Assembly (NCBI GenBank): GCA_910589415.1
Contig: OU342630.1
Span: 26,879,867-26,943,866 of the forward strand
DNA length: 64,000 nucleotides
Direction of reading: 5' to 3'
From: Malachius bipustulatus
Lineage: Eukaryota > Arthropoda > Insecta > Coleoptera > Melyridae
The notes under the pieces were generated by a model, which saw only the letters and a list, made by a program, of their open reading frames with translations, searched no databases and was not told where the DNA came from. The translations under genes were made by a program, and so were the position numbers. The stretch's first letter is position 1. The number at the start of each line of letters is the position of its first letter. Below, piece after piece: positions 1,611 to 56,872 of this stretch.

Positions 1611-2190
1611 CAGGGTCGTGTTTCATTAAGGTAGGTAAGCGACCGTATCTCGGAAACTAATGGGCCTATAACCTCAAAATAAAAAATTTCCAGACATAAG
1701 TGATCACGAGAAATTCAATGAAAATATTTTAGATGGCCGCACTTCCGGAAATACCGGAAGTTGACACCTACTCCGTTATTTTAACGGGAACACCCTGTAA
1801 AATATTTAATTTTTCAAATGTCTGAAGAAATCGAATACAGGTGGTTTTCATCATTGGAATTTAGATTGAGCGGTTTATGAGTTATAAACAAGTGAAAATC
1901 GAAAATTTTCAACTTCAAAGCAGTGTAGAACTAGAACGACTCAAGATATCTAAAAATGGTTCATGTCTCTATCCTAGCTTTTCATGTTCTATCCCATTAT
2001 GCGGAGTAAATTTTAATACAGGGTGATGAAAATTATCCGTTTTTTCATCACCCTGTATTAAATTTTAAACCACATAGAAGGATACTATGTCAAAAGTTAA
2101 GATAAGGACATGTAAACCGTTTTTAGATATCTTGAGCCGTTCTAGTTCTACACTGCTTTGAAGTTGAAAATTTTCGATTTTCACTTACAA
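1611..2190. repeat. Foldback element family H, left part (truncated)
   Basis: The sequence starts TA-CAGGGTCGTG at 1609..1611. An outer module (GGAAATACCGGAAGTTGACA, 1756..1775) leads into a palindrome centred near 2041, where ACAGGGTGATGAAAATTATC is answered by TTTCATCACCCTGTATT. The right arm is cut at about 2190. Fuller copies lie at 38252..39412 and 62190..63049. Confidence 0.75.
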
Positions 2191-4689: not shown

Positions 4690-4856
4690 CAATATATATA
4701 TATATATATATATCATGGGCAGGTGAATTTTGGAAAACCACTTTTTCGTGATCTGGGGGTCATGATCGGTGGACATTTGATGAGTTTGGGTGATTTTCGA
4801 AAAGTGATGTCGTCCTCAATAGTGTATTTTTTGTTAAAAAAATACACTAATACGAA
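4690..4856 (+). mobile_element. Microsatellite-linked short element (mini-me/Helentron-like), copy 1
   Basis: A (TA)n tract at about 4691..4713 is followed by the conserved GGGCAGGTGAATTTTGGAAA block and ends in a short hairpin, AGTGTATTTTTTGTTAAAAA then AATACACTAATA. The same microsatellite, block and hairpin order recurs at 9786..9950 and, inverted, at 13195..13360. The architecture resembles mini-me or DINE/Helentron-type short elements; this is inferred from layout only. Confidence 0.6.
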
Positions 4857-6958: not shown

Positions 6959-6990
6959 ATAATAGAAGTAATTGCCAAATAAATATATTA

Positions 6991-8354
6991 ATGGAAAATT
7001 GTTAAGGGCTATAGGCAAAAGTCTTTTCTTAAAGTGTGGTCTTTATTATAATATCAACGTTTCGACCGAACAATTTGGGTCATCTTCGGGATTCTAAAAT
7101 GACAAAAAGGAAACAGTTAACGATATAGCAGCTACTTACTAAAGATTACTTACAATAATTTGACCAATTTAATAGGTCTGGAAACATTTGGTAATTAGAA
7201 GAATTAAAAAATTTGTAATTTCTCGTCAACTATTTTCTTTGACAGATGTTTTGTCATTGAAAATTTATAATAATTATTACATAATAGTAGGTATTAAGAC
7301 TAGGAACAATTGAAATAATATAAATATAATAATTACAGAATTTTTGATTGATATTATTGTTTAAAAAAATTGTAATTGTAAATAAAAGTAAAAATTAGCT
7401 AGGTAGTTAATTTTTGTTCATTGTTTTTTGAGAATTTTTGTTATGTATGTCTGTTAATTTTGTTGTCATATAATAATATGGAGTTGTAAATAATGTTAAG
7501 GTCGTTTATCTCTGATTTGGTGTTAATGGAATTACTATCTTCATTTATATAACACATCTCAAGAAAAATTCTTTTTTGAAAATGTTTTTCTTCTGTGAGT
7601 ACAGAAATGTCTTCAAAGTTGGCCTCGTGATTGTTTTCTCTTTGGTGTTTGGCTAAAGCACAACGTTGTGGTCTTAATTTTGTATCACTCTTGTGTAATG
7701 ATATTCGTTGTTTTAAATAGGTGGAACATTGTCCGATGTAAGTACCATTGCAATTTTTACAAGGTATTTTGTAGACGATATCTGATCTTAAAAGGGACGG
7801 TAATTTATATTTCAGTTGTGTAAAAAGAGACCTATTAGTAATTATGTTTTTTTTGGCAATTTTTATATTTAATTCTTTGAAAACGTTCGAAATCTTTGGA
7901 GTGAGATCTGCTATATAAGGTAAAGACATGTGTTTTGGTAAATTAGGTTGTTCTAATGTATCTAATTGATGAGAATTATTCGGATTTATTCCAATAATCT
8001 CTTCTTGATTTTGTCTTGTTTCGAAACCTCTGTTTTGGTTATTAATGCTGTTATAAAGAATCCTATTAAGAAAAGTATTGGAATATCCGTTAAGTAATAA
8101 TAATTTTTTAAGTCTCCCAATGGCTGTGTTGTATAAAGAAGTATGTGTGATTTTTCTTATTCTATCTTTCATTTGAACTATGACATTAATTTTCATGTGA
8201 AGATGATGATAAGATGAATTATGTATATATTTTCCTGAATGTGAAGGTTTTTGGTACCAATCTAAGATGATCTTATTATTAATGTCTCTGATTAATTTAG
8301 TGTCAAGAAAAGGTATAGATCTTTCATTTTCTTCTTCAACAGTAAACTTTAACA
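6991..8354 (-). mobile_element. Penelope-like element, minus-strand arm of a palindrome (5'-truncated)
   Basis: This arm is an almost exact reverse complement of 8424..9785. The outer end is GGAAAATTGTTAAGGGCTAT, and the inner end stops inside the reverse transcriptase. It carries the C-terminal reverse transcriptase part, the GIY-YIG endonuclease and a 430-bp 3' region. Truncated copies in inverted or tandem pairs are typical of Penelope-like elements. Confidence 0.85.
7441..8354 (-). pseudogene. Penelope-like RT C-terminus plus GIY-YIG endonuclease (minus copy)
   Basis: About 303 codons are open to a stop at 7441..7443. The N-terminal part has the RT thumb-side motif SIPFLDTKLIRD. The C-terminal part starts at VYKIPCKNCNGTYIGQC, which is the GIY-YIG nuclease signature with the CxxC pair usual in animal Penelope-like elements. 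An H-rich helix (KHQRENNHEANFED) and a glutamate-containing stretch follow, as in this nuclease. The catalytic RT palm motifs are missing because the copy is 5'-truncated at 8354, so it cannot make a full enzyme. The Met shown by a simple ORF scan lies in the palindrome loop and is not a true start. In the intact element the enzyme would copy RNA into DNA at a nicked chromosomal site in the nucleus. Confidence 0.85.
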
Positions 8355-8355
8355 T

Positions 8356-9335
8356 TATAACATCCATCCCTCATAATAAAATCAATGAAATTTTGAATGT
8401 ATTCAACGATTATGATGATCATTTAAAGTTTACTGTTGAAGAAGAAAATGAAAGATCTATACCTTTTCTTGACACTAAATTAATCAGAGACATTAATAAT
8501 AAGATCATCTTAGATTGGTACCAAAAACCTTCACATTCAGGAAAATATATACATAATTCATCTTATCATCATCTTCACATGAAAATTAATGTCATAGTTC
8601 AAATGAAAGATAGAATAAGAAAAATCACACATACTTCTTTATACAACACAGCCATTGGGAGACTTAAAAAATTATTATTACTTAACGGATATTCCAATAC
8701 TTTTCTTAATAGGATTCTTTATAACAGCATTAATAACCAAAACAGAGGTTTCGAAACAAGACAAAATCAAGAAGAGATTATTGGAATAAATCCGAATAAT
8801 TCTCATCAATTAGATACATTAGAACAACCTAATTTACCAAAACACATGTCTTTACCTTATATAGCAGATCTCACTCCAAAGATTTCGAACGTTTTCAAAG
8901 AATTAAATATAAAAATTGCCAAAAAAAAACATAATTACTAATAGGTCTCTTTTTACACAACTGAAATATAAATTACCGTCCCTTTTAAGATCAGATATCG
9001 TCTACAAAATACCTTGTAAAAATTGCAATGGTACTTACATCGGACAATGTTCCACCTATTTAAAACAACGAATATCATTACACAAGAGTGATACAAAATT
9101 AAGACCACAACGTTGTGCTTTAGCCAAACACCAAAGAGAAAACAATCACGAGGCCAACTTTGAAGACATTTCTGTACTCACAGAAGAAAAACATTTTCAA
9201 AAAAGAATTTTTCTTGAGATGTGTTATATAAATGAAGATAGTAATTCCATTAACACCAAATCAGAGATAAACGACCTTAACATTATTTACAACTCCATAT
9301 TATTATATGACAACAAAATTAACAGACATACATAA
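8356..9335 (+). pseudogene. Penelope-like RT C-terminus plus GIY-YIG endonuclease (plus copy, frameshifted)
   Basis: This is the mirror copy of the minus-strand reading frame. It carries about 23 extra N-terminal codons (IPHNKINEILNVFNDYDDHL) from the asymmetric loop. The frame breaks in an A run: nine A at 8921..8929 against eight in the other arm, so the RT part ends at 8941 and the GIY-YIG part continues in another frame (ending 9335). Apart from this single indel the two translations agree wherever I compared them. It lacks the RT palm and is dead. The indel could also be a sequencing or assembly error in a homopolymer. Confidence 0.85.
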
Positions 9336-9785
9336 CAAAAATTCTCAAAAAACAATGAACAAAAATTAACTACCTAGCTAATTTTTACTTTTATTTACAA
9401 TTACAATTTTTTAAACAATAATATCAATCAAAAATTCTGTAATTATTATATTTATATTATTTCAATTGTTCCTAGTCTTAATACCTACTATTATGTAATA
9501 ATTATTATAAATTTTCAATGACAAAACATCTGTCAAAGAAAATAGTTGACGAGAAATTACAAATTTTTTAATTCTTCTAATTACCAAATGTTTCCAGACC
9601 TATTAAATTGGTCAAATTATTGTAAGTAATCTTTAGTAAGTAGCTGCTATATCGTTAACTGTTTCCTTTTTGTCATTTTAGAATCCCGAAGATGACCCAA
9701 ATTGTTCGGTCGAAACGTTGATATTATAATAAAGACCACACTTTAAGAAAAGACTTTTGCCTATAGCCCTTAACAATTTTCCATT
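8424..9785 (+). mobile_element. Penelope-like element, plus-strand arm of a palindrome
   Basis: Reverse-complement twin of 6991..8354, joined head to head through a 70-bp asymmetric loop (8355..8423) that belongs to the plus copy. The 3' region (9336..9785) ends CCTATAGCCCTTAACAATTT next to a (TA)n tract. It contains the hairpin GAAGATGACCC...GGTCGAAACG at about 9688..9718. Confidence 0.85.
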
Positions 9786-9950
9786 TATATATATATATAT
9801 ATCGTGGGCAGGTGAATTTTGGAAAACCACTTTTTCGTGATCTGGGGGTCATGATCGGTGGACATTTGATGAGTTTGGGTGATTTTCGCAAAGTGATGTC
9901 GTCCTCAATAGTGTATTTTTTTGTTAAAAAATACACTAATATAACCCCAG
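9786..9950 (+). mobile_element. Microsatellite-linked short element, copy 2
   Basis: (TA)n at 9786..9803, then CGTGGGCAGGTGAATTTTGG and the conserved block, ending in the AGTGTATTTTTTTGTTAAAA / AATACACTAATA hairpin. It abuts the end of the Penelope-like palindrome. Bases 9946..9977 are a fragment of the 163-bp MITE seen at 38515..39013 (ATTGATGAATACGGGCC). Confidence 0.65.
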
Positions 9951-11264: not shown

Positions 11265-13095
11265 TATCTATAAATGCGCCAGGTATACGAGATAAATTCT
11301 CAAAATTATAATTTTTTTTCATACCTTAAAATAAGGGTGACAGAAGTGCACTATAGATTTTTGAAAAGAGGGACTTTCGGAAGACTTTTGGCAAAAATTG
11401 CATTAACGCACATATCACACAAGGGTTGTTAGAGGGGGATGAATATTGATATAAATCCGTCAGGTATACTAGGTGAACTCTCAATTTTAATAATTTTTCC
11501 CCACCCCTGTTCAAGGGTGACAAAAGTTCACCATAGATTTTTGGAAAGAAAGACTTCCGGAGGACTTTTGGCAAAAATTTGCATTAACGCACATATCACA
11601 CAAGGGTTGTTAGAGGGGGATGAATATTGATATAAATCCGTCAGGTATACTAGGTGAACTCTGAATTTTAATAATTTTTTCCCCACCCCTGTTCAAGGGT
11701 GACAAAAGTGCACTATAGATTTTTGGAAAGAGGGACTTTCGGAGGACTTTTGGCAAAAATTTGCATTAACGCACATATCACACAAGGGTTGTTAGAGGGG
11801 GATGAGTATTGATATAAATCCGTCAGGTATACTAGGTGAATTCTCAATTTTAATAATTTTTCCCCACCCCTGTTCAAGGGTGACAAAAGTTCACTATAGA
11901 TTTTTGGAAAGAAAGACTTTCGGAGGACTTTTGGCAAAAATTTGCATTAACGCACATATCACACAAGGGTTGTTAGAGGGGGATGAATATTGATATAAAT
12001 CCGTCAGGTATACTAGGTGAAGTCTCAATTTTAATAATTTTTTCCCCACCCCTGTTCAAGGGTGACAAAAGTGCACTATAGATTTTTGGAAAGAGGGACT
12101 TTCGGAGGACTTTTGGCAAAAATTTGCATTAACGCACATATCACACAAGGGTTGTTAGAGGGGGATGAATATTGATATAAATCCGTCAGGTATATTAGGT
12201 GAACTCTGAATTTTAATAATTTTTTCCCCACCCCTGTTCAAGGGTGACAGAAGTGCACTCTGGATTTTTGGAAAGCAGAAGTTTCGAAGAATATTATATG
12301 AAAATTTTCATTAACGCACATGTCATACAAGGGCCCTTAGGGGGGGTTGAATATTGATATTATAAATGCGCCAGGTATACGAGATAAATTCTCAAAATTA
12401 TAATTTTTTTTCATACCTTAAAATAAGGGTGACAGAAGTGCACTATAGATTTTTGGAAAGAGGGACTTTCGGAGGACTTTTGGCAAAAATTGCATTAACG
12501 CACATATCACACAAGGGTTGTTAGAGGGGGATGAATATTGATATAAATCCGTCAGGTATACTAGGTGAACTCTCAATTTTAATAATTTTTCCCCACCCCT
12601 GTTCAAGGGTGACAAAAGTGCACTATAGATTTTTGGAAAGAGGGACTTTCGGAGGACTTTTGGCAAAAATTTGCATTAACGCACATATCACACAAGGGTT
12701 GTTAGAGGGGGATGAATATTGATATAAATCCGTCAGGTATATTAGGTGAACTCTGAATTTTAATAATTTTTTCCCCACACCTGTTCAAGGGTGACAGAAG
12801 TGCACTCTGGATTTTTGGAAAGCAGAAGTTTCGGAGAATATTATATGAAAATTTTCATTAACGCACATGTCATACAAGGGCCGTTAGGGGGGGTTGAATA
12901 TTGATATTATAAATGCGCCAGGTATACGAGATAAATTCTCAAAATTATAATTTTTTTTTCATAACGCAAATTAAGGGTGACAGAAGTATACTCTGGATTT
13001 TTTGAAAAAAGGACTTTTGGAGGACATTACGCAAAAATTTGCTTTTTTAACGCACATGTCACTTCACTCGGGGGTTGTAGGAGTGAAAAAAGCAT
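11265..13095. repeat. 182-bp tandem satellite, ten units
   Basis: The marker AAGGGTGACA(A/G)AAGT recurs near 11334, 11515, 11697, 11879, 12060, 12242, 12426, 12608, 12790 and 12974, giving a period of 181-185. Three units begin with a variant (AAATGCGCCAGGTATACGAG) at 11272, 12363 and 12911, splitting the array into blocks of six, three and one. Units before a variant carry TTCATTAACGCACATGTCAT. The 60-80 aa frames here repeat with the unit and are not genes. Confidence 0.9.
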
Positions 13096-13194
13096 AACAG
13101 AAAAGAGATAATATCACGTGCATTGTATTTCTATATAAAAAAATTTACATACTTTTGATCGTGGCTAGTTACCAGTCAAGTCAGACGCTTGTAT

Positions 13195-13327
13195 TAGTGT
13201 ATTTTTTAACAAAAAATACACTATTGAGGACGACATCACTTTTCGAAAATCACCCAAACTCATCAAATGTCCACCGATCCTGACCCCCAGATCACAAAAA
13301 AGTGGTTTTCCAAAATTCACCTGCCCA

Positions 13328-13360
<33 letters not shown>
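13195..13360 (-). mobile_element. Microsatellite-linked short element, copy 3 (inverted)
   Basis: The minus strand reads (TA)n (13331..13360), the GGGCAGGTGAATTTTGGAAA block, then the terminal hairpin at about 13196..13224. It is highly similar to the copies at 4690 and 9786. The hammerhead-bearing segment lies just beyond the microsatellite. Confidence 0.65.
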
Positions 13361-13363
<3 letters not shown>

Positions 13364-13470
13364 ATAAATAGAAATCTTTAGAGAGTAATTAATAAATATA
13401 AAGGAAATGATTATTGGGCTTTTTCTCTTAAAATGCACTCCACGGCAACCAGCAACAAAAATCCAAGCAG

Positions 13471-13532
13471 ATCCGGAGCCACGGACAGCGCTGTTTCGGC
13501 CTTCTTTGGCCTCTTCAGCGTAGCACACCGAG
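13471..13532 (-). ncRNA. Type I hammerhead ribozyme
   Basis: On the minus strand the conserved core is complete. Stem I 5' strand is GCTACG (13524..13519), followed by CUGAAGA (13518..13512). Stem II is GGCC-AAAGAA-GGCC (13511..13498), followed by GAA (13497..13495). Stem III is ACAG-CG-CUGU (13494..13485), followed by C17 (13484). Stem I 3' strand is CGTGGC (13483..13478). The stem I strands pair over six positions with one G-U pair. An internal loop follows, then a further CGG/CCG helix (13530..13528 with 13476..13474), the shape expected for loop I-loop II contact. Predicted self-cleavage is between 13484 and 13483. The very short stem III is typical of type I hammerheads in animal retroelements and retrozymes. 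Only one core was found nearby, so a tandem retrozyme is not shown. Confidence 0.8.
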
Positions 13533-13665
13533 AACGCAAGGACAATGCTACCGAAAGCCATGGAATGCGCCAGTTCTATACAAATCACAGGATTTTTACA
13601 TCAGTGACCTGCAAGACAGAACGACTGCGACGACACCTACTGCTGGTGGTAAGAACCACCGACCA

Positions 13666-13828
13666 TCAACAGCAGACAATCGCCTTCGTGAGACAAGACT
13701 CCTCGTGCAGTTACCTGCTATGAGGATTTGACAAGTCCCCGGGGCAGCGCCAGCTAGTGGCCGGCAGCTCCCTTCACCATTAGCCCATGTAAATTGCCTT
13801 GTCTCACGAAGGCGATTGTCTGCTGTTG
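13666..13828. repeat. Short inverted repeat beside the hammerhead
   Basis: CAGCAGACAATCGCCTTCGT (13669..13688) is mirrored by ACGAAGGCGATTGTCTGCTG (13807..13826), with GAGACAAG on the loop side of both arms. The loop is GC-rich (CCCCGGGGCAGCGCCAGCTA). It may be one end of the same mobile unit that carries the hammerhead. Confidence 0.6.
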
Positions 13829-14190
13829 AAATTCAAGTAGGTACAGGATCACAATCCCCATAATTTAAAATTATTTTGGACTATACAGAGTATCCCATAA
13901 ACAGTGGCATGTCAAAGTTATGTGTTTTTAAATGGAATGCTCTTATGTTATTGCATTTTTAGATTATCTGAGAAAAAAAAAATAAGATAGATTTTTACAG
14001 TTGCTGTTTAAATTGAGAAGTTTGTGACTTATTATACAGGATGTTATATAAGATATACGTCTTCAAAGTTTCAAGAATTTCATTCTAAAAATTTATGAAA
14101 CGATAAAAATAATAACGGAACAACCTTACAGTAAACACCTTGTATATAAGAATTATTAGTAACAATTCATTATTAGCAACCATAGCCTCC
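13829..14190. repeat. Fragment of foldback family A arm
   Basis: GTACAGGATCACAAT at 13841 through to AGTTTGTGACTTAT at 14033 matches the left arm of the family A element (2965..3170) with scattered changes. The terminus is missing. The rest up to 14190 holds nothing recognisable. Confidence 0.6.
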
Positions 14191-16028
14191 GGTTCATTGG
14201 TGAATTCAGAGGATACCGAGATGGTTCTAAAATACCCTCTCACGTTCTTAGTAACATAGATTCAGGGTGTTTTATGGATATCGGCAATTTCTTTCGAAGG
14301 TCATAACTAATAAACCATCCTGTATAGTTTTTTGAAATTTGGCAAAAAGTTTCCATTTCGCTGCACAAACGTTTGACATAATAGCCGGAAGAAAAATCCA
14401 GGCCCTGACTTACAACAACTTAATACATATTAGTGTTTGTAAAACAACATGTTTTCAAACTTATAATTTTCAAGATTCGTTTTGGTATTTTAAATGAGCA
14501 AAAAATTTTGAATTAAACAATGTACTTTTTCTAGTTCCGCATCCGATTCTACGAATGGCATTTTGATCTCCAGGTTAGATTATTGCCTAAAACCGTTTCA
14601 AAACATTGAAAAATGTTTTTAGTGAATAACGAACATAAATTATTGTATATTGAAATTTGCGAAAGATGTCTGGCAGTACTTCTGTATGTCATGAAATAAC
14701 TCTGTAAAAGTTTGAATACAGGTCCGTACCAGAACAAAAAATATTGAAATGTTTTGTTTATTTTCTAATACCCTGTAGAAGAAAACATAATATCTACTCG
14801 CTAGTTTTGTCCTACGTGTTAATTCATAATAAAAACATCCATTTAGATAAAGTTAATTTACACGTAATTTTTTGTGTTGAACGTGTAGAGATATTTTTTT
14901 AATTTTCGCCAAACATGACATAAAAGCTTAATTATTAACATTATGACCAGCTATTGCTGCATTTTCATTTTGATCATTTTTCACCATTCTTTGATTAATT
15001 CTCATTGATTTTGGATTGTGACAGTAAATGTACTAGTAAATATGTATACAAAAAAATAAAAGTTGGAAAAATAAACAAAAATTTCAATATTTGTTCTAGA
15101 ATGGACCTGTTTTCAATTTTTTAAGAGTTTTATGAGATACAAAAGTACTGCCAGACACATGATTAACACTTTTAAATGTTTTGAACCGGTTTTCAGCAAA
15201 AATCTAACTTCGAGATCAAAATGCCACTCGTATAGAATCGGATGCGGAACTACAAACAGTATTTATTTCATACTAATACATTATAACATTATTAATAAAA
15301 TAGATAAACCCTTGGTTACCATACCTATAAACATATTCCTAACTCCCTTGGGAGTTATACTGGGCTGTTATTACTCCTTAACTCCCTCTAATGAATTAAC
15401 AAAAATAAACCGACAATTATCGTTTGTTTAATTCTGGTAACCAACAATATTTGGATTTCATATGTCATTTTCTATAAACTTTTCAGTTGATATATCCATA
15501 GTAATCTTGCTTACTCAATTATTAAAAACATTCGTTTAATATTAAAAACCAACAGATTTGGTTTTTATATTTCATTTTGTATGAAATAAAATTATTTATC
15601 TATCACGTGAGTTATTGGAGTTAATAACCTCGGGCAACTTAATAATCCCTCGGGACTTACGTCCCTCGGGATTGCAATATTAGATGATACATAAATAACT
15701 ATTTCTACTCTTATTTACTGCTCTTATTTTCTACTCTTTTAAAATATCAAAACGTAAGCTTTTGTAATTCCATACCTGGATGTTTCTTCCGGCTATTATG
15801 TCAAACATTTGTGCAGGAAAATGGAAACTTTTCAACAAATTTCAAAAAATTATACAGGCTGGTTCGTTAGTTATGTCATGACCTTCGAACGAAATTGGCG
15901 ATATCCATAAAACACTCTGTATCTATGCTACTAAGAACGTGAGACCCATTAACCATGGGTTTTTTAGAACCACCTCGGTGTCCTCCATCCACAGTTACCG
16001 CTTGTCCGATTACCAATGAAACACCCTG
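14191..16028. mobile_element. Foldback element family G, interrupted
   Basis: The right end is ATGAAACACCCTG (to 16028) followed by TA. The arms match inward: TTATGGATATCGGCAATTTC (14274) against GGCGATATCCATAAAACACT (15897), and CCGCATCCGATTCTACGAAT (14537) against CGTATAGAATCGGATGCGGA (15229). The left terminus is degraded near 14190. The right arm is split by an unrelated repeat (15255..15740). No transposase. Confidence 0.7.
15255..15740. mobile_element. Insertion with CCCTCGGGAC hairpin, also at 35490..35960
   Basis: It shares TTTATTTCATACTAATACAT, TTGGTTTTTATATTTCATTT and the hairpin CCCTCGGGACTTACGTCCCTCGGG (split by a four-base loop, about 15647..15670) with the copy at 35490..35960. 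It interrupts the right arm of a foldback, which sets its limits to within a few bases. No coding capacity; class unknown. Confidence 0.65.
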
Positions 16029-26502: not shown

Positions 26503-27129
26503 ACACCCACGGAGGAAATAAAGGTAAGCCAGATCAATCTGCAGCACAGCCGGGATGCCACAGCAGAAATGCTAAGCAGCCTGGTAAAAAAACCTGCAGA
26601 TGTGATACTAATTCAGGAACCATATGTCTTTAGGAGCCAGATAAAAGGACTATCAGGCCTGGGCTTCAAACTTCTGGTGGGAGCCAAGGCAGGAGAGACA
26701 CCCAGAAGCTTCATACTGGTGTCCAAGAGGCTAAGCTCGGTACCCTTACCGCAGCTGGGGACCAGGGACGCCACAGCAATGCTTCTGGAATACAAAGTAA
26801 GTGACATCTCACATAAGATAATTCTAAGTAGCTTATATCTCCCATACGACGGTGAACGTCTGCCATCGCAAGAGATGGCAGATATAACAACGTTTGGGGA
26901 AAGCAGAGGGATCCCAGTAGTAATAGGTTGTGACGCCAACGCGCATCACACCCTATGGGGCAGCAACGACGTCAACACACGCGGAGAGGCCCTACTGGAA
27001 TATCTAGCAACTACAGACCTTGAAATAAGTAATAGAGGCAGGGAACCAACCTTTGTCAATCGCAACCGCAAGGAGGTGATTGACATAACCCTAGCCTCCA
27101 AAAACATAACCTGTGATGTACGAGAATGA
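26503..27129 (+). pseudogene. LINE ORF2, apurinic endonuclease domain
   Basis: The frame opens at 26503 after a TAA and reads QINLQHSRDAT, then ADVILIQEPYV, the N-terminal motifs of the APE-type endonuclease. GCDANAHHTLWGS carries the catalytic DAN/H region. A TGA at 27127..27129 breaks the frame just before the SDHR motif (about 27158), which belongs to the same domain in the same frame. The enzyme would nick the target DNA for target-primed reverse transcription. Because of the stop and the missing start this copy is inactive. Confidence 0.85.
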
Positions 27130-27132
27130 CAA

Positions 27133-29271
27133 GTGACGGGCGATGTCCTGCTGTCCGACCACCGCATGATCCGATTCAAGATCAAAGCGAGGATGGCGGC
27201 AGACAAGCCCAAACGAAACCCAAGGACTACTAATTGGGAGATCTTCACAAAAGATCTCCAAATAAGGTTCAAGGGTCCCCCACCTCAAATCACACAGGAA
27301 AACATAGACCAAGAGGTAGAGAAATTAAGCAAAAAGATAACCAAGGCGTACGAAAAGGCGTGTCCCTTGAGAAGGCCTCCAGAAAAGAAAATCAGGTGGT
27401 GGAGCAAAGAACTCCATCACCTCAGGAGGTCAGCGAGGAGGTCACTTCGACAGGCCGTGACCTCAGGAGAGGACACTCAATGGGACCGTTTTCGAGAAGC
27501 CAGAAGAGAATTTAAGAGAGAGTTAAGGCACAGCAAGAGAGCGAGCTGGCGAGAATTCTGCGAGGAGATAACCTCACTCCCGGAGGCTGCCAGGCTCGCA
27601 AAATTGCTTAGTGCCTCAAAACGCAACGAAATAGGCTCGATCAAGAAAGAGGACGGAACCTGGACAGAAACGGAGGAGGAGACAATTGAGCACCTCCTCA
27701 GAATCCACTTCCCGGGAACAGACCAAGTCGACCCAGAGAGGCGGGCGGAGCCAACCTCAGACTGGCAGCTAGCCGAAAATCTGGTAAACGACGAGGTCAT
27801 ACGAAGGGTAAGCAAAGAGTTCCGTCCATACAAGACAGCAGGACCTGATGGCATTTTCCCAGCATTGCTGCAGGCGGGCCTGGAAACGATTCTCCCCAGC
27901 GTGAGAAACATATTCCGGGCTAGCCTAGCAACGGGATATGTGCCCCAGGCATGGAGGAAAGCAAACGTGGTCTTCATTCCCAAACAAGGAAAAGAGGACT
28001 ACACTTTAGCTAAGTCATTCAGGCCTATCAGTCTGACATCCTTCATGCTGAAAATGCTAGAAAGGATAGTCGACAGATACCTGATAGAAAACACACTGCG
28101 TGAGTTCCCGTTTCACAGGGGTCAACACGCTTACCTGAAGCAAAGATCCACGGAAACTGCTCTACACGCAGTGACTAGAGAAATTGAAAAAGCGCTGCAT
28201 CACGGGAACTGGGCCTTGGCCATTTTCTTTGATGTGGAAGGCGCTTTTGACAAGGCAAGAACAAGAACCAAATGCACAGAGCTGCAATCCAGGGGTACCC
28301 CCCCGGTCCTGATTAACTGGATTGCTTCAGCGATCGAAAGCAGGCAGGTGTCGTCGGGTGCGGGAGAAGTTCGAGTGGGCATTGCGGTGAGTGGTGGATG
28401 CCCCCAAGGCAGCTGCCTATCTCCTCACCTGTGGTGCCTGATCATGGACGGCCTCCTAAAGCGCCTGACAGATGACGGACTGTATGCACAGGCATACGCT
28501 GACGATGGGCTGGTTCTAGTAACCGGCCAATTCCTAAGCGTGGTCTGCGATCGCATGCAAAGTGCATGTAAGATAATTGAAAAATGGTGTGAAGAGGCGG
28601 GGCTGACCATCAACCCCGGAAAGACCGACATGGTCCTCTTCACAAGGAAAAGGGAAAAAAGAGGATTCAAACCACCCAGGCTGTTTGGCAAACTCCTAAC
28701 TCTTAGTGGGGAGGCCAAATACCTTGGAATGGTATTAGACAAAAAGCTGACCTGGAAGCCACAGATTGACAGAATAGTCACAAAAACTGTGTCATCTCTA
28801 TGGCAGCTAAGAGGGACAATAGGCAAGGTGTGGGGGCTAAAACCGAAGATAATGCACTGGTTATACACGGCCATCATCAGACCGAGAATCAGTTATGGTT
28901 CGGTGGTCTGGTGGAAAACAACCACAAGCAATACCGTTGCAAACAGGCTAGCTAAACTCCAACGGCTCGCCAGTTTGTTAATAACAAGTGCAATGAGAAC
29001 CACCCCGTCAGCAGCCCTGAATGTCATTCTGGAGCTGCCACCGCTTCCCATTTGGATAAAAGGGGAGGCCATGGCGGCCCACCTAAGAATGCGTGATTCG
29101 GGACTATGGAAAGGCGGAGGTTACAAAGGACACACAGAGATAGCCAAGGTTGCCGAGATGGAGATACCAATCTCAAACCTTATGTCTACCTCAAAAACAA
29201 GAAACAACAAAGAAAACAAGAAATTACCCTGCAAATTCCTGAAAAGGAAAAGTGGGAAAAAAGGGAGGTAG
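27133..29271 (+). pseudogene. LINE ORF2, reverse transcriptase domain
   Basis: Same frame as the endonuclease part, resuming after the TGA with the end of that domain (LSDHRMIRF). RT motifs in order: KTAGPDGIFPALL, FRPISLTSFMLKMLERIV, IFFDVEGAFDKA (first catalytic Asp), GGCPQGSCLSP and YADDGLVLV (catalytic Asp pair), followed by thumb-region motifs (KTDMVLF, KYLGMVLD). The ORF runs out at 29271 in a lysine-rich tail that looks like out-of-frame reading. A frameshift therefore lies between about 29100 and 29230, before RNase H. Confidence 0.9.
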
Positions 29272-30125
29272 CCTTCGAACCAGGAGGACTAGTCTGTTTC
29301 ACAGACGGCTCCAGGAACAAAAATGGCCACGTAGGAGCGGGGCTCTACCTGGCTGGACGGAAACTGGGAAGATCCTACCCTCTTGGGTCCACAGCAACCG
29401 TCTTCCAGGCGGAGATTTATGCTATCCTGCAAGCAGCTAGACTGGAGCAGATAACAGAAGCCGGGGAACGGACGATATACATATGCACGGATAGTCAGGC
29501 CGCCGCGAAAGCGCTGGGCACACACGGAACCAGCTCCCCACTGGTCCAGGAGTGTGTCGAGGCGCTGAACAGACTGGCGGACAGAAAATCGGTGCATATC
29601 GTGTGGGTTCCCGCACACTCAGGTGTACCAGGTAATGAGCTAGCAGATCAATACGCGAAGCTCGGGACCAGGGAAACCTTTTGTGGGCCGGAGCCCGTCC
29701 TGGGTCTGACCAAAAATCTTCTCAAAGAATCTATAAAAGAATGGACTCGCAAGGGTTTAGAGAACCACTGGGAAACAGCACCAGGCTGCAGACAGGCCAG
29801 ACTGTTTCTGGCTGGTCCGATCGGAAACAGATGGACCAGCATGTCCAGAATGAACCGGAGGGAACTCAGACTACTAGCCGGGGTTCTCACCGGTCACAGC
29901 AGTCTGAACAGACACCTGCAAGTGATGGGGGTCACTCGGGACCCGGTCTGCCCTAAATGCGGAATGGATGACGAGGACTCCCACCATTATGTGGGCGTAT
30001 GCGAGGTATACAGTAACCTCAGGCTCAACATCTTTGGGTCAGAGGAGCTACAAGAAGAAGAAATGAAACTCCTCTCATACAACAACCTTCTGGCCTTTAT
30101 TAAAAGGTCGGGGAGGTTCGAGTAG
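29172..30125 (+). pseudogene. LINE ORF2, RNase H domain and zinc knuckle
   Basis: Reads in a different frame from the RT. RNase H motifs: CFTDGS (first Asp), AEIYAILQA (Glu), CTDSQAA (Asp) and WVPAHSGVPGNELAD (His/Asp), so all four catalytic positions are present. A C-terminal CPKCG...HHYVGVC knuckle follows at about 29951..30004. The stop is at 30123..30125, about 95 bp before the (TAC)n tail. The apparent start at 29106 is an artefact of the frameshift. Confidence 0.88.
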
Positions 30126-30219
30126 GAGTTTCACCATGGTTCGGGTAAGGCGAAAAGGGCCCTCGGTGGCCTAGTCGCTTGGGGTGTACCACCCCAACCC
30201 ACCATACTACTACTACTAC

Positions 30220-46050: not shown

Positions 46051-47408
46051 TATAATCTGAATGTTATTTTTTTTTCTGCGACGGGCTATAAGTTTGACCT
46101 TTTTTCCCCGTTGACAGGTAGAAAAATGCCTCATTATATGAGCTGCATCTTATCGGGGAAATAAATGAATTAGCAGGGAAATAAATGAGTACTTATTTCC
46201 CCGAAATGGCGGCTTAGGTATAGCTACTATTAACACTCAGATATCATTAAATTTATATCAAATATTAGTAAAGGAAAGTTACCTTATTATCCAAATGGCA
46301 ATTATTAAGGGAATTTTCATAATAATCACTATCCATATTATTAAATTCACTCATCGAAAACTAACAAGAATCTTTGCAAAACTGTCTTCAATTTTATTTA
46401 CATTAATATGACGTTTATGTAATAATTAAATCGTTTCGTTACCCAGGCAACGTCAATTACGATAAAAGACAGTTTGAAAATCCAAGTTTAACATAAATCA
46501 TTTTTCCGACATAATTTTCAGTTATCTAACTACGTTTTTCGACATTCTAACACTGATATTTCTTCTCGCAGAAAAAAATTGTATATTACACACGAGAAAA
46601 AAGTGCGATGTTAGCTCTCGATGTGTTTGTCCCCTCCGCTAACGCGTCGGGGACGAAATCACATCTCGAGCTAAAATCTATCACTTTTTTCTCTTGTATA
46701 ATAAATAACTATTATTGTAGGTATTAATTTTATTTTTGGCGTGCCAAAATATATAACCTATACATAAAATGGTGAATATAGCTTTCTATCTATCTATAAC
46801 AACAGCAAGTACCTAAGTAATAAGCGTACAGAAAAGTTATAGGTATTGTTATGAAAAATTGGGTTCAGATAAAGACAAATAGAGATTTCAAGCTGGAATT
46901 GAATTTAAAAACGACACAATTAAATTTATGACTTGCAACAAATAAAAAGTAATAATAATTAGAAATTAGAAATGTCAAAAAGAAATTATTTTGGATTGTT
47001 AAAAAATCAGGAATAATAGTTATTTATTATACAAGAGAAAAAAGTGATAGATTTTAGCTCGAGATGTGATTTCGTCCCCGACGCGTTAGCGGAGGGGACA
47101 AACACATCGAGAGCTAACATCGCACTTTTTTCTCGTGTGTAATATACAATTTTTTTCTGCGAGAAGAAATATCAGTGTTAGAATGTCGAAAAACGTAGTT
47201 AGATAACTGAAAATTATGTCGGAAAATGATTTATGTTAAACTTGGATTTTCAAACTGTCTTTTATCGTAATTGACGTTGCCTGGGTAACGAAACGATTTA
47301 ATTATTACATAAACGTCATATTAATATAATTAAAATTGAAGACAGTTTTGCAAAGATTCTTGTTAGTTTTCGATGAGTGAATTTAATAATATGGATAGTG
47401 ATTATTAT

Positions 47409-55354: not shown

Positions 55355-55917
55355 TTAACTGACAGTCTGATGTTGTAAAAATTTACATATCATTTCATAG
55401 CTACTAAAATGTAACGCAGTCGTAGAAACACACTTAATTAAACTTGGATTCAAACCTTTGAAATATCCCAATAATCCTTCTGTTCTATATATTTTTACAA
55501 TGCAATCTTTTAAACTTGTACATTTGAAGACGACACCAAAATCTTTGCGATTATCTTCAAAACCTTGGATTTGAATACGCTTTTTAATTAAATCAAAAGG
55601 ATATACAGTCGTTTTCGCACATAAACCTGCTAAGCTACCTGCTATTAAACTAGTAGTAACGGTAGTCTCCTGAACGGAACCGAAATTTTTACAAATATCA
55701 TTAAACAGCTTATAACACATGAACTGCATCCCCGTGTGGGGGACAGTTTGTAAGACTGTGGGCCATAATCCTCGGTATAGCACAAAAAATCCTTCCGTTT
55801 TGTAAATTCTAATTAAAGCGTGAATATTCCCATAGTACAGCTTCTTCTTTTCTGACTGTGCTACAAGACGAGTCCTGATGACATCAAATGGAAAGGAAAC
55901 TAGTGTTGCAACTGACC
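55355..55917 (-). CDS. SLC25A19: Mitochondrial thiamine-pyrophosphate carrier-like, exon 2
   Basis: Encodes residues 130-316 and the stop. Two of the three mitochondrial carrier repeats are here, with signatures FPFDVIRTRL (about 138-147) and YPFDLIKKRIQIQ (about 235-247). Each is followed by the G-rich helix partner (SLIAGSLAGLCA; GLLGYFKGLNPSL). The acceptor TTAAAG precedes 55917. The split codon joins exon 1 to give AAGSVATLVSF without a break. The upstream 134 bases of this exon are masked by lack of an ATG but are clearly coding (EKKKLYYGNIHALIRIYKTE). The carrier sits in the inner mitochondrial membrane and exchanges thiamine pyrophosphate for nucleotides in known family members; the substrate here is inferred from overall resemblance. 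Confidence 0.88.
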
Positions 55918-56872
55918 CTTTAATAAAAAGATTAATTAAAGTTTAATTTAACCGAATGAGAGAATATTCAAAAAAGTAACTGAACAAAGTTAAAGCCAAC
56001 CTATTTAACAGAATTTCAGATGATCACTTTTATTCTTATTTAAATAAATTACTCAGCTGAATTTAATTTAAGAACCCTCTCCTGTTAATCCATAACAAAG
56101 AAAATTGTGCAATCGTTGTAATGAAAAAGATCAACGAAACTTGTTAATCATCCACTGTTTGATTTAATAATTTATTGATACAATAAGGTGAAATTGTTTC
56201 TTCTTTAAAAAACAAGAATAAAATTTAAAAACAAATTGAACGTCAGATTTTTGGTTTTCTTGATTTTCTTCAGATTTTGAACTGTCAAATGGATTTTGAC
56301 AATCTTATGTATCATGTAGGAGCTTGCAAAAATTATTCAGTTTTTTTCAACATATTTCAGAAAAGACTGAAGTTATTCATAAAAAATTTTCCCATAATGT
56401 ATTAAAAAATATAAAATTGTGCACATTTTTTGTAATTTAACCAACTCCTGTATCGCACATACTTCACAAGATCCTCATGCTGTTTATTCTTATCTTGGAC
56501 ATACTGTATATAAAATAACGAGTCAGAGGTAGCCGGCGCTAAGACAGGTGTCACAAAGAAAAACGCACGTTACTGTGTTGACGTGGCTCATTATAATTTG
56601 ACTGTGCTGTGTTAAACAACTTTTCCAAATAAAATTTTAAATGAATCTGTGAAAGCAAGGGTAGTTTACTCTGAAATCGTTTTCCTATTTTTGGTAACAC
56701 CTCGTATAAGTAAGCAGACAATTTCTCTTTGGTTGTTGGTTTCTACATGTGAAACAATGTAGAAACTTTTTGCAGGAATAAAATTTCCTCGATAGTTTAC
56801 AATGAACAATTTTCCCATTTATGTTTCCAACTTAGTGGTTAAGAAAAAATTTTATTATTTAATAAGTCTTAC
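55918..56872 (-). other. Intron of the carrier gene
   Basis: 955 bp, GTAAGA donor and AAAG acceptor. Contains a diverged relative of the 528..1122 foldback (TTTTGGTTTTCTTGATTTTC, GAACTGTCAAATGG, about 56235..56300). No other gene. Confidence 0.8.

What the first reader, a model, noticed from the sequence alone, without database searches (positions are those of the whole stretch)
13471..13532. Complete type I hammerhead ribozyme core on the minus strand
All invariant positions of the hammerhead are present in order: CUGAAGA, a 4-bp stem II, GAA, an A-U closed stem III (ACAG-CG-CUGU) and C at the cleavage position. Stem I pairs over six positions and has the internal loop needed for tertiary contact. 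It sits in a GC-richer mobile-looking fragment beside a (TA)n-linked short element. In animals such ribozymes mark Penelope-like elements and retrozymes (established). That it cleaves here is inference.
Basis: partly seen in the sequence, partly recalled or inferred. Interest (0 to 1): 0.85.

Follow-up and report, generated by a model that had tools for sequence, protein, structure and literature searches.

The report
Beetle type I hammerhead ribozyme copy
A stretch of DNA in what appears to be a beetle genome spells out a small self-cutting RNA, the hammerhead ribozyme, which by prediction forms best when two copies pair; it is a new example of a known kind, and whether it still cuts was not tested.

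Summary
On the minus strand, 13530-13474 spells a type I hammerhead with every core position, three stems and a predicted cut between 13484 and 13483. No Rfam family reaches its gathering score; Hammerhead_1 gives 25.0 bits against 34. A model I built from 26 phage type I hammerheads gives 36.6 bits, E 9.9e-8, next hit 10.9 bits. A strict descriptor hits once in the window and once in 800 simulated windows.

New here: stem III is the perfect palindrome ACAGCGCUGU. Alone, the RNA is predicted to prefer another fold. Two copies, unconstrained, fold as a double hammerhead, as published for newt hammerheads.

The motif lies in a GC-rich, strongly self-paired segment (13435-13829) without a second copy in the window. 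It has stem III, which published Penelope-type hammerheads usually lack, but no tandem copies, which animal retrozymes have. Best reading: a solitary, probably inactive retrozyme-like copy. The decisive test, other genomic copies, could not be run: 23 requests did not complete. New member of a known kind.

The parts
13474..13530 (-). Type I hammerhead ribozyme motif with outer stem I
   Evidence: Sequence; Rfam Hammerhead_1 25.0 bits, gathering 34; own model 36.6 bits, E 9.9e-8
13512..13518 (-). Core CUGAAGA (A at variable position 7)
   Evidence: Sequence
13498..13511 (-). Stem II GGCC-AAAGAA-GGCC
   Evidence: Sequence; paired in both models
13485..13494 (-). Stem III: perfect palindrome ACAGCGCUGU, 10 bp between two copies
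   Evidence: Unconstrained two-strand fold
13483..13484 (-). Predicted cleavage site between C17 (13484) and 13483
   Evidence: Position in the motif; inference, no cleavage data
13435..13568 (-). Long imperfect hairpin that extends stem I, hammerhead at its tip
   Evidence: Fold of 13432-13571: minus -66.6 kcal/mol, z -5.36, 0 of 200 shuffles as low; plus z -2.62, 3 of 200. Stretch picked from the minus-strand fold
13569..13625 (-). Second imperfect hairpin in the same segment
   Evidence: Fold of 13569-13626: z -4.69 minus, -0.67 plus; picked from the minus-strand fold
13666..13829 (-). Hairpin with 32-nt perfect inverted arms 13666-13697 and 13798-13829, 100 nt between
   Evidence: the repeat finder
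13435..13828 (-). GC-rich (53.6%) self-paired body: candidate RNA-derived element
   Evidence: Composition; folds; upper edge adjoins repeat X, whose other copies mostly run about 70 bp further
13361..13434 (-). AT-rich (GC 21.6%) stretch between body and (TA)n, affiliation unknown
   Evidence: Composition

Best explanation
The segment is the DNA copy of a small, highly self-paired RNA that carried a canonical type I hammerhead ribozyme: a solitary, retrozyme-like retroelement copy in what is most likely a beetle genome. In its working state, transcripts holding two hammerheads (tandem copies or two molecules) would pair through the palindromic stem III into a double hammerhead and cut after C17 (13484), leaving a 2',3'-cyclic phosphate and a 5'-OH. 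The released monomers would be circularised by a host ligase and copied back into DNA by another element's reverse transcriptase. Shown here: motif, statistics, strand-biased self-pairing, predicted dimer. Inferred: cleavage, circularisation, mobility. This single copy is probably not active in that cycle, because a lone hammerhead releases no unit-length RNA.
For: Complete motif, the only one found in 64 kb. Own model 36.6 bits, E 9.9e-8, next 10.9 bits; Hammerhead_1 25.0 bits with no pair marked non-standard. The unconstrained dimer fold is a double hammerhead, -60.3 against 2 x -25.2 kcal/mol. The part outside the perfect inverted repeat, 13435-13665, folds with z -5.35 on the ribozyme strand (0 of 200 shuffles as low) and -1.79 on the other (10 of 200). 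A body of about 394 nt would lie in the published 170-400 nt range, and highly self-paired circRNAs are reported for animal retrozymes (PMC7229834, abstract, two of three parts of Results, and Discussion). Palindromic stem III allowing dimers is published (PMC3088659, one supplement legend; axolotl in PMC7229834). A frame across the hammerhead has no homologue in a word-based search and no Pfam match.
Against: No Rfam family reaches gathering score. The minimum-energy monomer is not the hammerhead, while 25 of 26 phage hammerheads fold correctly alone in my control; PMC7761336 (passages) says that most invertebrate type I hammerheads have a stable helix III and cut as monomers. The dimer energy gain alone is not telling: all 26 control dimers also lie below twice their monomer, 4 of them by more than the window's 52-nt piece, and 3 of 26 share stem III pairs. 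No tandem copy, no second copy in the window, no convincing target-site duplication. Body GC 53.6%, against below 50% for animal retrozymes; with the AT-rich stretch 48.5%, but then 468 nt long. The G-U over A-C excess in the arms is not robust (22:2 with arms from the fold; 14:8 strand-neutral, shuffles 324:181).
Confidence: 0.6

Rival explanations
1. The hammerhead belongs to the pseudo-LTR of a decayed Penelope-like element whose other parts are lost here.
For: A Penelope-like palindrome with a GIY-YIG-like domain (E 0.00066, below the Pfam cut-off) lies at 6979-9796; Penelope elements carry type I hammerheads, for which dimeric action is proposed too (PMC11167929 passages; PMC7761336 passages).
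Against: Published Penelope hammerheads are minimal and usually lack stem III; this one has it. The window's own Penelope copies show no nucleotide match to the segment, and 9600-9800 of them no hammerhead family match. Frames over the segment show no Penelope domain.
Confidence: 0.15
2. Chance: a hammerhead-like string in unrelated GC-rich DNA.
For: Below all Rfam gathering scores; monomer fold is not the hammerhead; model and descriptor count stem III pairs that a monomer cannot make; 1 of 800 simulated windows also gave a strict hit.
Against: E 9.9e-8 with a separate model, 25.7 bits above the next hit; double-hammerhead dimer without constraint; strand-biased self-pairing of the surroundings.
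Confidence: 0.06
3. The segment is an endogenised viroid-like or other circular RNA rather than a retrozyme copy; the hammerhead served rolling-circle replication.
For: About 394-nt, GC-rich, largely self-paired body with a hammerhead on one strand; single copy in the window.
Against: No hammerhead found on the other strand and no replication evidence; animal retrozymes already explain size and pairing.
Confidence: 0.1
4. A host-gene hammerhead, in an exon or an intron.
For: An open frame crosses the motif on the minus strand (13292-13600).
Against: No homologue for 63 residues of that frame (the search needs shared 5-residue words) and no Pfam match; repeats flank the segment on both sides.
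Confidence: 0.04

Closest known systems
Animal non-LTR retrozymes (coral, mussel, axolotl; PMC7229834)
   Same: Canonical type I hammerhead with stem III, self-paired RNA body of a few hundred nucleotides, Penelope-like elements in the same genome
   Different: No tandem copies here, GC of the body above 50%, no target-site duplication found, copy number unknown; invertebrate members are reported to cut mostly as monomers
Newt and axolotl repeat hammerheads (PMC6155905, PMC7229834)
   Same: Weak monomer, palindromic stem III region, dimer as the predicted active form
   Different: Here up to 3 bp plus a GCGC tetraloop rather than one or two pairs; not in a tandem array
Penelope-like and Terminon minimal hammerheads (PMC7761336)
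   Same: Type I topology, proposed dimeric action; a Penelope-like element is in the window
   Different: Those usually lack stem III; this one has it, and no Penelope frame adjoins it
Dolichopoda cave cricket pDo500 hammerhead (PMC2837043)
   Same: Insect hammerhead; C1.1 next to the core and a core that varies mainly at U7
   Different: pDo500 is a satellite DNA with many copies; this is solitary in the window

Membership tests
Type I hammerhead ribozyme | Core CUGANGA, GAA, A15.1-U16.1, H17 | tested here: met
   Sequence
Type I hammerhead ribozyme | Three stems, open at stem I | tested here: met
   No pair marked non-standard; stem III with 3 bp plus tetraloop in a monomer, 10 bp in a dimer
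Type I hammerhead ribozyme | Rfam gathering score | tested here: not met
   25.0 bits, gathering 34. A curated cut-off, not a functional feature
Type I hammerhead ribozyme | Loop 1-loop 2 tertiary contact | tested here: inconclusive
   Internal loop UGU/U in stem I and loop AAAGAA exist; contact not modelled
Type I hammerhead ribozyme | Self-cleavage | not testable with these tools
   Needs a transcription assay
Animal non-LTR retrozyme | Canonical type I hammerhead with stem III | tested here: met
Animal non-LTR retrozyme | Tandem copies of 150-450 bp | tested here: not met
   Two 12-nt direct-repeat pairs are all that was found in 13000-14400; no other copy in the window
Animal non-LTR retrozyme | GC below 50% | tested here: inconclusive
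   53.6% for 13435-13828, 48.5% for 13361-13828; true borders unknown
Animal non-LTR retrozyme | Multicopy in genome, circular transcripts | not testable with these tools
   The genome search unanswered 23 times; no RNA data held
Penelope-like element | RT plus GIY-YIG frame next to the hammerhead | tested here: not met
   No such domain in 3 frames over the segment; Penelope-like frames lie at 7441-9335
Penelope-like element | Minimal hammerhead without stem III | tested here: not met
   Stem III present

The most novel reading that the evidence does not exclude
A new kind of non-tandem hammerhead element of beetles: a GC-rich RNA of about 394 nt with its hammerhead at the tip of a long stem-I rod and a 34-bp hairpin at the other end, inserted as a single unit and working only as a double hammerhead, possibly an endogenised circular RNA replicon.
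Probability: 0.13. Interest if true: 0.65.

Novelty: new member of a known kind. Interest (0 to 1): 0.35.

Why it matters
Type I hammerheads are reported from insects, but in the papers seen here solitary copies are little described. A likely beetle copy with a palindromic stem III gives a directly testable case of the dimer requirement outside amphibians. It also shows that a motif below Rfam's curated cut-off can stand out clearly with a simple phage-derived model.

Tried and rejected
Coding exon across the motif: no homologue for 63 residues; of 3 frames over the segment 2 have no Pfam match and one a weak match to a reovirus core-spike domain, E 0.021, 15.2 bits against a cut-off of 27, taken as chance. 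G-U over A-C excess as proof of RNA-level selection: dropped; 22:2 rested on arms chosen from the minus-strand fold, and strand-neutral arms gave 14:8 (9:4 with stricter scoring) against 324:181 (198:104) in 40 shuffles each. An earlier strand-neutral scoring was too loose: 77.5 observed, shuffles up to 74.5. By strand-neutral scoring the hammerhead hairpin arms are not beyond shuffles (21.0; five best of 40 shuffles 25.5 to 28.5). Relatives in viral contigs: an 18-mer of the inverted repeat hit 3 contigs; no longer match to them was shown, taken as chance; a core pattern with this loop II hit 0. A minimal hammerhead in the window: none. A hammerhead family match in the Penelope 3' stretch 9600-9800: none. 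Target-site duplication at four assumed border pairs: only a 5-nt match away from the border. Literature: the titles listed in 6 searches (capped lists, 20 of 22, 20 of 32, 20 of 108, 12 of 174, 2 of 2 and 15 of 36 papers) show none on beetle hammerheads; this is no proof that none exists.

Model R1: of 120 type I-like sequences in 120 viral loci, 61 passed length and stem filters and 44 remained after removing near-copies; I gave 26 of these 44, chosen by eye for similar length, to the alignment.

Full report
What is there. The minus strand of 13530-13474 reads CGG UGU GCUACG CUGAAGA GGCC AAAGAA GGCC GAA ACAGCGCUGU C CGUGGC U CCG. These are all core positions of a type I hammerhead, with C17 at 13484. 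Position 7 is A instead of U. A study of cave-cricket hammerheads calls U7 the only core position that may vary (PMC2837043, passages), and 6 of 120 phage type I-like sequences in my set have A there.

Is it more than chance. Rfam at gathering scores finds nothing in the window. With E-value thresholds the matching families are HH9, 21.7 bits, gathering 52, E 0.066 in 5 kb, and, in 121 nt, Hammerhead_1, 25.0 bits, gathering 34, E 0.0002, with no pair marked non-standard. A covariance model from 26 phage type I hammerheads gives 36.6 bits, E 9.9e-8; with filters off the next hit has 10.9 bits. A strict descriptor gives 1 hit in the window, 1 in 800 Markov windows and 0 in 200 windows of local composition; the relaxed one gives 1, and 2 in 60. 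Both models and the descriptor count stem III pairs with a loop of 0 or 2 nt, which a single molecule cannot form in full.

How it would work. The minimum-energy monomer pairs CGCUG with CAGCG and buries the core. Forcing the hammerhead in the 470-nt RNA costs 4.8 kcal/mol (-201.5 against -206.3). As a control, 25 of 26 phage hammerheads fold correctly alone; the window's does not. Its stem III is a perfect palindrome. Two copies, unconstrained, fold into a double hammerhead with a shared 10-bp stem III, -60.3 kcal/mol. In the control set 3 of 26 dimers share stem III pairs; all 26 control dimers lie below twice their monomer, by 5.2 to 17.9 kcal/mol, against 10.7 for the window's 52-nt piece, so the energy gain itself is not telling (differences computed by hand from its table). 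Dimer action is published for newt and axolotl hammerheads (PMC6155905 passages; [quoted passage not shown] Against this, most invertebrate type I hammerheads are said to have a stable helix III and to cut as monomers (PMC7761336 passages). The folding programs ignore tertiary contacts and magnesium, so monomer activity is not excluded.

Surroundings. The hammerhead sits at the tip of an imperfect hairpin 13568-13435 that extends stem I (z -5.36, 0 of 200 shuffles as low; opposite strand -2.62, 3 of 200). A second hairpin follows, then one with perfect 32-nt arms. The first two stretches were picked from the minus-strand fold, which favours that strand. The stretch 13435-13665, which only leaves out the perfect repeat and the AT-rich end, has z -5.35 on the ribozyme strand and -1.79 on the other. 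In a tiling of the window with 30 shuffles each, the segment scores -7.55 and -1.40; 8 of 278 tiles are as low, and these are four positions that are low on both strands, as DNA palindromes are. Three further tiles are below -5 on one strand only, apart from one that overlaps this segment. The body has 53.6% GC against 34.2% for the window.

Borders. On the high side the segment meets repeat X at 13829. In 4 of the 5 other copies that I aligned (of 6 found) X runs about 70 bp further; the 42704 copy diverges there. On the low side lies an AT-rich 74 nt, then (TA)n and a short element. That (TA)n abuts the same end of the short element in 3 of 3 copies with different DNA beyond, so it belongs with the short element. 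No convincing target-site duplication was found.

Host. A mitochondrial carrier frame at 55355-55942 has as its 16 best matches proteins from species whose genus names I recall as beetles, 61 to 66% identical. The Penelope-like frame's only named match, 1 of 8, is from Coccinella septempunctata. The host is thus most likely a beetle; the species is unknown.

Verdict. A genuine type I hammerhead motif with stem III in a solitary, self-paired segment; most likely a retrozyme-like copy, probably not active as a lone unit. Membership in the retrozymes is not established, because tandem copies are absent here and genome copies could not be examined.

Noticed in passing
window 6979-9796: A near-perfect palindrome (98.6% identical to its own reverse complement over 2.8 kb) of two head-to-head Penelope-like C-terminal frames with a GIY-YIG-like domain; real inverted duplication or assembly fold-back artefact.
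   Followed up: partly
window 13189-13349, 4692-4853, 9783-9944: Short element, 3 copies, the other two 96-98% identical to the first, each with (TA)n at one end and a hairpin TAGTGTATTTTTT..AAAAAATACACTA at the other.
   Followed up: partly
window 9684-9745 and its mirror near 7046-7110: Penelope 3' region holds GAAGATGACC...GGTCGAAACG, which reminds me of a decayed minimal hammerhead; no Rfam match in 9600-9800 and no match by my model. The resemblance is recalled, not tested on relatives.
   Followed up: partly
window 11333-13042: Tandem array of a 182-bp unit, 9.4 copies.
   Followed up: no
window 26503-30125: Reverse-transcriptase frame (RVT_1) with neighbouring frames that look by eye like the endonuclease and RNase H parts of a LINE.
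   Followed up: no
window 46461-46691 (-), 1841-2071 (-), 29901-30131 (+): Tiles with strong predicted RNA folding (z below -5) on one strand only.
   Followed up: no
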